Below, in pieces: positions 26,418 through 27,905 of a DNA stretch of 34,474 nt (its first letter is position 1; each line of letters opens with the position of its first letter). The DNA is from Methanolobus sp. GTDB taxonomy: Archaea > Halobacteriota > Methanosarcinia > Methanosarcinales > Methanosarcinaceae. Both the position numbers and the translations under genes were made by a program. The stretch spans positions 1-34,474 of the forward strand of contig NZ_JAUXNK010000095.1 in assembly GCF_030682845.1 (NCBI RefSeq), in the 5' to 3' direction. The notes beneath the pieces were generated by a model. That model did no database searches, was not told the origin of the DNA, and saw only the letters and a list, made by a program, of their open reading frames with translations.

Positions 26418-26948
26418 AGGGGCATACTATACGCACCATCTAATATAAACTCAACTATGGGTAACCTATAAACCAGGCCGTGTGGATTTATAGCAAACCG
26501 GGTACCTGCAAAGAAAGCTCATCAGAATCTGGTGGGATTGTAGCTTATCTTTATCATATCTTGCTGTTCACTTGAAACACTGTTTTTGGCAATATTTCTC
26601 TGTTACACTGCATTTTAAAGTCCAATGGAGCTTAATTTTCGAAATAGTAACTTGAATGCTGTATTTGCGTGATTAACTCTCTCATTAATGCTCCTATTGA
26701 ACAAAAAAGAAATATTTATCTAGCATGAATTGCAGTTATTATATTGTTGATAGAAGGATTTGGCTGTATTAATCTCTTCAAAATATGAACGAAGAAATAA
26801 TATGCCTTTAATTCTCCTTAAAACAAATGAGCACTGAAATAAAAGAAAAGATTTATATATTATTACTTCCATTTAAGTAATTGCAAGGCACAACGCAACA
26901 AAGTGTTCCGGATGTGTTAACGCAAAAACAGATCAAGATTAAACGAGC
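26418..26948. other. AT-rich intergenic region between divergent PAN and winged-helix genes
   Basis: It holds the PAN promoter on the left and, on the right, GATTTATATATT (about 26849-26860), a good TATA box for the plus-strand gene; this predicts a start near 26882 and a leader of about 90-150 nt. No ORF of note, tRNA or repeat was found in the AT-rich middle. Confidence 0.5.
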
Positions 26949-27009
26949 AACCATTATCTGAGGGGATAAATGGTTTGTGAATCCATTATATCTGAGGGGA
27001 TGAATGGAT
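26949..27009 (+). promoter_or_regulatory. Two tandem hairpins with SD in the loop and AUG in the stem
   Basis: Copy 1 (26949-26975): AACCATT-ATC pairs with GAT-A-AATGGTT. Copy 2 (26981-27009): ATCCATT-ATATC pairs with GAT-G-AATGGAT. Both loops are TGAGGG or close to it and expose most of the SD GAGGGG; both 3' arms contain an AUG. The compensating outer bases (AACC/GGTT against ATCC/GGAT) support pairing. The ATG of copy 2 (27004) opens a 9-codon frame whose TGA overlaps ATG 27030 of the main frame (ATGA). The ATG of copy 1 (26970) is in frame with the protein. Confidence 0.55.
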
Positions 27010-27029
27010 CTGCAACAAGAGGCAAAAAG

Positions 27030-27905
27030 ATGAAGGTTCGGCTTGAGATCATCGATGAAGATGGCATTGAGAGCACAAATGTCGAGTTTGGCGGGAAGCA
27101 CTGGAAACGGTGTCTTCTTGCATTCATTGACTCTATCGAGGACGCGAATCCAAAACACACCGAACCTTCGTCTGCTTACTCACACACGAATGTTACTTCT
27201 AATCCTGTTAATTACAATGGTGTTCCGGGCTCACAACCTTCTAATGTTCATGATCATGCCCAGCAGCCTGTAATGGCACAGCCGTTTATGCAACAGCAAC
27301 AGGCTATGCAGCAGCAGGCTTTCTTCCAGCAGCAAGCTCAGCAACAGGCCCAGTACCAACAGCAGCAGCAATCGCCTTATCAGCAGCAGTCTCAATATTA
27401 TCTACCTCCTGCGGTGGCCCCGTATTATTACTATGGACAGCCGGCTCAGAATATATCCTCTAGCAACTCCCAACAACCACTCCACTATCCACCAGTCCAG
27501 CCGGCTGCTCCGGAGGTAATGCCTGTCAGGCAGCAGGATGCTTATAATGGCAGTGTCCGGCAGCGTGTCACAGGACGCACCGCAAGTTTACAGGAACGGA
27601 TGAACGATTCTTCTCTCACTATCAACGAGAGGCTTGAGCTCTTCCTGAAGTACGAGTATCCTCGTGTCTGGTTCTCCTCGCAGGACGTCCAGCAGCACTA
27701 CGAGCAGATATACGGCACGATAAAACAGAGCACGGTTTCGACCTATCTCTCAAGGATGTTCCAGAAAAACATGCTGGAGCGTCGTGGCAACAGGACTCAG
27801 CGGGAATATAAGTACATCGGTGGCGAGATAAGCAGTCCGCGTCAGCCGGTTCCTGCTCAGGCAGGTGTTCCGCCTTTTTACAGGAACTCCGTGGAATATG
27901 GTTAA
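27030..27905 (+). CDS. Gln-rich winged-helix protein
   Basis: 291 residues from ATG 27030 (AGAGG 7 nt upstream); 311 residues if ATG 26970 is used. An N-terminal alpha/beta segment of about 45 residues (MKVRLEIIDEDGIESTNVEF) is joined by a Gln-rich, Tyr- and Pro-containing linker (about 75-190, with runs of up to five Gln) to a C-terminal winged helix (INERLELFLKYEYPRVWFSS through STVSTYLSRMFQKNMLERRG). The linker is disordered and prion-like in composition, rare in archaea. Likely a DNA-binding regulator; targets unknown. The leader hairpins suggest translational control. No closer family recognised. Confidence 0.7.
   Translation: MKVRLEIIDEDGIESTNVEFGGKHWKRCLLAFIDSIEDANPKHTEPSSAYSHTNVTSNPVNYNGVPGSQPSNVHDHAQQPVMAQPFMQQQQAMQQQAFFQQQAQQQAQYQQQQQSPYQQQSQYYLPPAVAPYYYYGQPAQNISSSNSQQPLHYPPVQPAAPEVMPVRQQDAYNGSVRQRVTGRTASLQERMNDSSLTINERLELFLKYEYPRVWFSSQDVQQHYEQIYGTIKQSTVSTYLSRMFQKNMLERRGNRTQREYKYIGGEISSPRQPVPAQAGVPPFYRNSVEYG

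What the first reader, a model, noticed from the sequence alone, without database searches (positions are those of the whole stretch)
26949..27033. Tandem SD-in-loop, AUG-in-stem hairpins plus a coupled minicistron
Two near-identical units occur in the leader, each a hairpin with the SD in the loop and the AUG buried in the stem; outer base pairs differ but still pair. The AUG of unit 2 drives MDLQQEAKR and stop, overlapping the main start as ATGA, while unit 1's AUG is in frame with the main protein. This looks like a translational switch choosing between two protein forms, or sensing temperature or a binding protein.
Basis: partly seen in the sequence, partly recalled or inferred. Interest (0 to 1): 0.63.

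Follow-up and report, generated by a model that had tools for sequence, protein, structure and literature searches.

The report
Conserved tandem leader hairpins in methanogens
Two copies of a small RNA hairpin sit just before one methanogen gene, are kept across a whole order of archaea by paired mutations, and recur in a separate small RNA, which points to an unrecognised RNA switch read by an RNA-binding protein, possibly the gene's own product.

Summary
The two hairpins are real and much more than chance. They are two copies of one conserved RNA hairpin: a UGAGGG hexaloop on a short RUC/GAU stem, an internal loop, and an outer stem. They lie in the roughly 150-nt leader of a gene for a ββα + Q/P-rich linker + winged-helix protein in a Methanolobus genome. 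An exact tandem pair occurs once per genome in 57 of 112 family genomes. Hairpins with the same kind of loop precede the same gene in other families. The loop stays fixed while the outer stem changes with compensation (0 of 2000 permutations). It is not in Rfam.

The reading frames, the minicistron and even the AUG are not conserved, so neither two protein forms nor a coupled minicistron is the function. A thermometer is unlikely.

Searching with the hairpin found a second carrier: an unannotated ~95-nt structured RNA just downstream of rtcB. In this family it occurs in nearly the same genomes as the gene (63 both, 45 neither, 4 discordant).

Best explanation (inferred): a protein-recognition hairpin for translational control of this gene, most simply autoregulation, with the second RNA as the same protein's partner or decoy. 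Protein binding is untested.

The parts
26852..26859 (+). TATA box (TTTATATA); predicted transcription start near 26874-26886, so a leader of about 150 nt
   Evidence: Present about 92-115 nt upstream of the unit-1 core in nearly all genera; TATA box 19-22 nt from mapped starts in M. psychrophilus (PMC5378194). The start itself is inferred, not mapped here.
26949..26975 (+). Unit 1 hairpin; hexaloop UGAGGG 26959-26964, inner stem AUC 26956-26958 / GAU 26965-26967, outer stem CCAU 26951-26954 / AUGG 26970-26973
   Evidence: R1 hit 38.1 bits
26975..27015 (+). Unit 2 hairpin; hexaloop UGAGGG 26993-26998, inner stem AUC 26990-26992 / GAU 26999-27001, outer stem CCAU 26983-26986 / AUGG 27004-27007 extended by UUGUG 26975-26979 / UGCAA 27011-27015
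   Evidence: R1 hit 33.4 bits
27019..27022 (+). GAGG Shine-Dalgarno of the main gene, 4 nt after the unit-2 stem
   Evidence: Conserved as AGAGGC in most relatives
27030..27905 (+). Regulated gene: 291-aa protein with N-terminal beta-beta-alpha domain (1-38), disordered Q/P-rich linker, C-terminal winged helix (about 187-265)
   Evidence: Homology starts at MKVRLEIID in relatives; AlphaFold model m92fcdcd031f0; Foldseek to winged-helix folds
27004..27033 (+).
   Evidence: Reading frame not conserved
26970..27029 (+). In-frame N-terminal extension from ATG 26970 or ATG 27000; judged a clade-specific open frame
   Evidence: Open and in frame in 8 of 51 distinct relatives

Best explanation
The leader carries two copies of a conserved protein-recognition RNA hairpin that controls translation of the downstream gene. 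Shown by comparison: the transcribed strand forms, or is under selection to form, hairpins with a fixed UGAGGG loop and a covarying outer stem; they sit just upstream of the gene's own SD and start; the same hairpin occurs in a separate structured RNA next to rtcB. Inferred: a dimeric RNA-binding protein binds the two loops, and because the unit-2 stem ends 4 nt before the SD, the bound protein blocks the 30S subunit. The simplest candidate is the encoded winged-helix protein itself (negative feedback). The rtcB-adjacent RNA would then be that protein's structural partner, whose site the mRNA mimics, or a decoy that titrates it. The AUGs and the minicistron are by-products of the stem sequence CCAU/AUGG.
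For: Exact tandem pair once per genome in 57 of 112 family genomes and nowhere else in 238 class genomes; no hits with the reversed control pattern. The fetched pairs all lie just before this gene. Core 11-mer unique to the leader in the own genome. Hairpins with the same loop precede the same gene in families f2, f3 and f5, and in one genome of another family, f21. Fixed loop with changing outer stems (CCAU/AUGG, CCAC/GUGG, CCGU/ACGG, CCCCCGCA/UGCGGGGG, GCCACA/UGUGGC): permutation 0/2000; 30 two-sided cells against 10.4 expected, 0/500 shuffles. Core C-G becomes U-A in L115. G-U pairs tolerated, as in RNA. TATA box ~100 nt upstream in nearly all genera. Second RNA with the same hairpin: GUUUGAGGGGAUGAAUGG; its closing stem covaries. 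In the family it occurs with the gene in 63 of 112 genomes, neither in 45, gene only in 2, RNA only in 2 incomplete MAGs. Encoded protein has a winged-helix fold.
Against: No binding data for any protein; winged helices more often bind DNA. Methanotrichaceae-like family f7 keeps the protein without a recognisable hairpin, so the hairpin is not obligatory for the gene. Family f5 has one altered unit (GGAGGG, different stem), and unit 2 is degenerate in genus g5 (L036). The five genera lacking both gene and RNA may be one clade, so their co-absence may be a single event. g23 has the gene without a detected RNA, and R2 finds no such RNA in f2, f3, f5 or f7. The leader transcript is inferred from the TATA box, not mapped here.
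Confidence: 0.5

Rival explanations
1. The hairpins are recognised by a different trans-acting factor (another RNA-binding protein, or a ribonucleoprotein that also uses the rtcB-adjacent RNA), and the winged-helix gene is only its target.
For: The same hairpin lies in an RNA next to rtcB and, in genus g5, in a third hairpin at another locus. Family f7 keeps the protein without the leader element.
Against: No other gene is consistently associated with the hairpin, and the RNA and the gene co-occur almost perfectly within the family.
Confidence: 0.3
2. DNA operator: two inverted repeats bound by the winged-helix protein as a transcriptional autorepressor, the RNA pairing being incidental.
For: Winged helix similar to BlaI/MecI and other repressors; near-palindromic arms.
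Against: G-U pairs are kept; left and right internal loops vary in length independently (2-7 and 2-4 nt); the loop between the arms is the most conserved part and is not palindromic; the spacing of the units varies 31-38 nt with no helical phase; the sites lie ~100 bp downstream of the TATA box; the same hairpin lies inside a structured RNA at the 3' side of rtcB.
Confidence: 0.1
3. Ribosome standby or decoy sites: GAGG in the loops binds the anti-SD of 16S rRNA and feeds or traps 30S subunits near the main start.
For: The loop holds GAGG, a match to the archaeal anti-SD CCUC, and families f2 and f5 have GGAGG.
Against: Explains neither the fixed flanking bases, nor the fixed G at a position where an SD would have U (GAGGUGAU), nor the copy in the rtcB-adjacent RNA, nor the distances of about 35-100 nt to the start.
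Confidence: 0.07
4. One reading: alternative starts or a coupled minicistron choosing between two protein forms, or a thermometer.
For: Literally present in this genome and its close relatives.
Against: Frames and AUGs not conserved; the main SD is outside the stem; the loop sequence is fixed.
Confidence: 0.03

Closest known systems
Csr/Rsm system (CsrA with GGA hairpins in leaders and in titrating RNAs)
   Same: SD-like G-rich loops on small hairpins near a ribosome site, more than one per leader, and a separate small RNA bearing the same hairpin
   Different: Loop is UGAGGG rather than ANGGA; archaeal; candidate protein is a winged helix, not a CsrA fold; the small RNA has one such hairpin, not many; binding not shown
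Ribosomal-protein-type autoregulatory leaders (mRNA mimics the protein's structural RNA)
   Same: A leader motif next to the gene resembles a site in a separate structured RNA that occurs with the protein
   Different: The protein is not a ribosomal protein and its RNA partner is unproven
Guanidine-II (mini-ykkC) riboswitch
   Same: Tandem small hairpins with identical conserved loops close to the ribosome site
   Different: Loop UGAGGG, not ACGR; tied to one regulator gene; no Rfam match
SD-masking stem-loops in Methanolobus psychrophilus long 5' UTRs (PMC5378194)
   Same: Same genus, long leaders, stem-loop near the ribosome site
   Different: Those are temperature-dependent start-site isoforms; this is a sequence-conserved hairpin family kept across several families

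Membership tests
RNA-level structured cis-element | Covariation of stems with a conserved loop | tested here: met
   (0/2000 and 0/500)
RNA-level structured cis-element | Located in the transcribed leader | tested here: inconclusive
   Conserved TATA box upstream; no mapped start was readable
Upstream ORF / translational coupling | Conserved small reading frame ending at the main start | tested here: not met
   Unit-2 frame ends at the start in 16 of 51
Alternative-start switch | Conserved in-frame upstream AUG | tested here: not met
   8 of 51; AUG replaced by GUG or ACG
RNA thermometer | SD paired in a temperature-labile stem, loop unconstrained | tested here: not met
   GAGG is in the loops, the main SD lies outside the stem, the loop is invariant; melting was not measured
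Csr/Rsm | ANGGA in the loop | tested here: not met
   Loops: UGAGGG 83, GGAGGG 21, AGAGGG 3, others 2
Csr/Rsm | A protein of the CsrA family | not tested
   No CsrA search of the genome was run
Csr/Rsm | A separate RNA carrying the same hairpin | tested here: met
   R2 RNA, one hairpin
Autoregulatory mimicry leader | The encoded protein binds the leader | not testable with these tools
   Needs a binding assay
Known Rfam family | Covariance-model match | tested here: not met

The most novel reading that the evidence does not exclude
A three-part post-transcriptional circuit of Methanosarcinales: a winged-helix RNA-binding protein, an mRNA leader with tandem UGAGGG hairpins that it represses, and a ~95-nt RNA next to rtcB carrying the same hairpin that titrates or assembles with it. 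This would be a Csr-like arrangement in archaea, built from unrelated parts.
Probability: 0.25. Interest if true: 0.85.

Novelty: new variant of a known kind. Interest (0 to 1): 0.63.

Why it matters
Protein-read cis-regulatory RNAs appear to be few in archaea (my general knowledge, not surveyed here). This one is conserved across a whole order of methane-cycling archaea, has a simple testable loop, a candidate protein and a candidate partner RNA, and none of it is in Rfam. It would give a tractable handle on post-transcriptional control in methylotrophic methanogens and their relatives.

Tried and rejected
K-turn/K-loop (CUGA ... GAUGA) for L7Ae: unit 1 reads GAUAA in Methanolobus, which breaks the required pair; rejected from the sequence. 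Alternative pairing of the 5' leader (UGAUGUAUUCAC) with the unit-2 left arm: near-perfect in some Methanolobus but lost in other genera; not pursued. A large regulon: the own genome has only three R1 hits, two in the leader and one in the rtcB-adjacent RNA. Hits in Methanosarcina and some other distant genomes are mostly inside coding sequence and look like chance. A conserved peptide in the rtcB-adjacent RNA: frames differ. Rule '1 unit with a duplicated N-domain, 2 units with a single one': L177 breaks it. Sequence relatives of known structure: only low-complexity noise.

Full report
WHAT IS THERE. The window is a contig of a Methanolobus-like genome; six relatives in the named collection are titled Methanolobus or Methanosarcinaceae. 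Upstream of the ORF at 27030-27905 lie two near-identical hairpins. Each has an inner stem RUC/GAU closing a UGAGGG hexaloop, an asymmetric internal loop, and an outer stem CCAU/AUGG that continues outwards with different bases in the two units. The gene has its own SD, GAGG, 4 nt beyond the unit-2 stem. The TATA box TTTATATA at 26852 is strongly conserved, and in M. psychrophilus starts lie 19-22 nt from the TATA box (PMC5378194). The predicted leader is therefore about 150 nt and contains both hairpins.

CHANCE AND CONSERVATION. The fold of the 85-nt stretch has z -2.76. The 11-mer core occurs only twice in the genome. An exact tandem pair occurs once per genome in 57 of 112 family genomes and in no other genome of the class, and the reversed control pattern gives no hits. 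Gene-anchored loci from eight genera show the pair in front of the same gene. Genomes without the gene (Methanosarcina-like genera) lack it.

ORDER-WIDE ELEMENT. Homologues in families f2, f3 and f5 align only over the winged helix, but they share a similar MKIRLEI-type N-terminus and carry units with the same kind of loop in their leaders. In f2 the second unit is a continuous stem around the same loop, for example CCCCCGCAAUC-UGAGGG-GAUUUGCGGGGG. Family f5 has one altered unit, AUCGGAGGGGAAAUCC. One genome of another family, f21, has gene and unit (L242). Family f7 keeps the protein but shows no recognisable unit.

RNA, NOT START CODONS. With the loop fixed, the outer stem changes by compensation: the best-stem score of 16 representatives exceeds all 2000 random re-pairings of arms, and 30 cells change on both sides against 10.4 by shuffling, 0/500. 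Inside the family, examples are CCAC/GUGG in L035 and L115, CCGU/ACGG in L077, and a C-G to U-A swap in the core of L115. G-U pairs are tolerated and internal-loop lengths vary, which speaks for RNA and against a DNA operator. Within single units of the family the shuffle test alone is not significant, because the sequences are close; the strength comes from comparing families. The AUG in the arm is replaced by GUG or ACG where the stem changes.

READING FRAMES. Across 51 distinct elements the unit-1 codon is in frame and open into the protein in 8, the unit-2 minicistron ends at the main start in 16, and all three frames occur. Because the main start reads ATGA, any upstream frame of the right phase ends there automatically. 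The two-forms and minicistron ideas are therefore not supported.

A SECOND CARRIER. A covariance model of the unit (R1), run over the order and phylum, returned a recurring second locus. It is a ~95-nt RNA with closing stem GAGGAAACG.../...CGUUUCCUC and an invariant GUUUGAGGGGAUGAAUGGUUU, just downstream of rtcB (Pfam RtcB, E 6.5e-184) and upstream of a TGT_C2/PUA gene. RNAalifold independently places the same GAGG-loop hairpin in it, and 4 pairs of its predicted structure (all in the closing stem) have compensated changes. It has no Rfam match. A model of it (R2) finds one copy in 65 of 112 family genomes. From I count 63 genomes with both gene and RNA, 45 with neither, 2 (g23) with the gene only, and 2 incomplete MAGs (G131, G134) with the RNA only. 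Genera without either may form one clade, so this may reflect few events. R2 finds it in no other family of the class, although three f3 genomes carry a related motif at another locus.

THE PROTEIN. AlphaFold gives a confident small beta-beta-alpha domain (1-38), a disordered Q/P-rich middle and a confident winged helix. Foldseek matches are generic winged helices, both DNA- and RNA-binding (Zalpha, BlaI/MecI, Fur, eS25), all weak. No Pfam family passes its cut-off and no NCBIfam family matches.

MECHANISM. I commit to a protein-recognition hairpin controlling translation of this gene. The unit-2 stem ends next to the SD, so a bound protein would block initiation, and two copies suit a dimer. 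Autoregulation by the encoded protein is the simplest reading, because gene, leader element and second RNA travel together. The steps 'protein binds', 'represses' and 'RNA titrates or assembles' are inferred and untested.

LIMITS. Genomes searched are unnamed; relatedness inflates counts; E-values from the short calibration are rough; the transcript start is inferred; whether the rtcB-adjacent RNA is a separate transcript or part of the rtcB mRNA is unknown.

Noticed in passing
Own genome contig C79:36720-36814 (L003:1485-1579): Unannotated ~95-nt structured RNA between rtcB and a TGT_C2/PUA-domain gene, conserved in eight genera of the family, not in Rfam, containing the same UGAGGG hairpin.
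   Followed up: partly
L223, L230, L232 (family f3), second R1 loci: Another predicted structured RNA with GCGUUUGAGGGGAUGGAUGG inside a closing stem such as GGAAUUCGGGA/UCCCGAAUUCC, next to a divergent conserved ORF that looks like a RibD-type protein.
   Followed up: partly
L111 and L113 (genomes G030, G083): UUCUGAGGGGAUGAAUGG inside a strong AGGUUGG/CCAACCU hairpin at an unrelated locus, in the genus where leader unit 2 is degenerate.
   Followed up: no
Families f3 and f5 homologues (e.g. L130, L131): The N-terminal beta-beta-alpha domain appears duplicated, and the long Q/P-rich linker is short or absent.
   Followed up: no
Family f5 leaders (e.g. L132, L133, L168): A second, plain strong hairpin replaces unit 2, followed by CCUC(C) about 8 nt before the GAGG SD, which could pair with and hide the SD.
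   Followed up: no
window 26880-26948: The 5' half of the leader (GUGUUCCUGAUGUGUUCACA...GGAUCAAGAUUAAA) is well conserved in Methanolobus and partly complementary to the unit-2 left arm, but not in other genera.
   Followed up: partly
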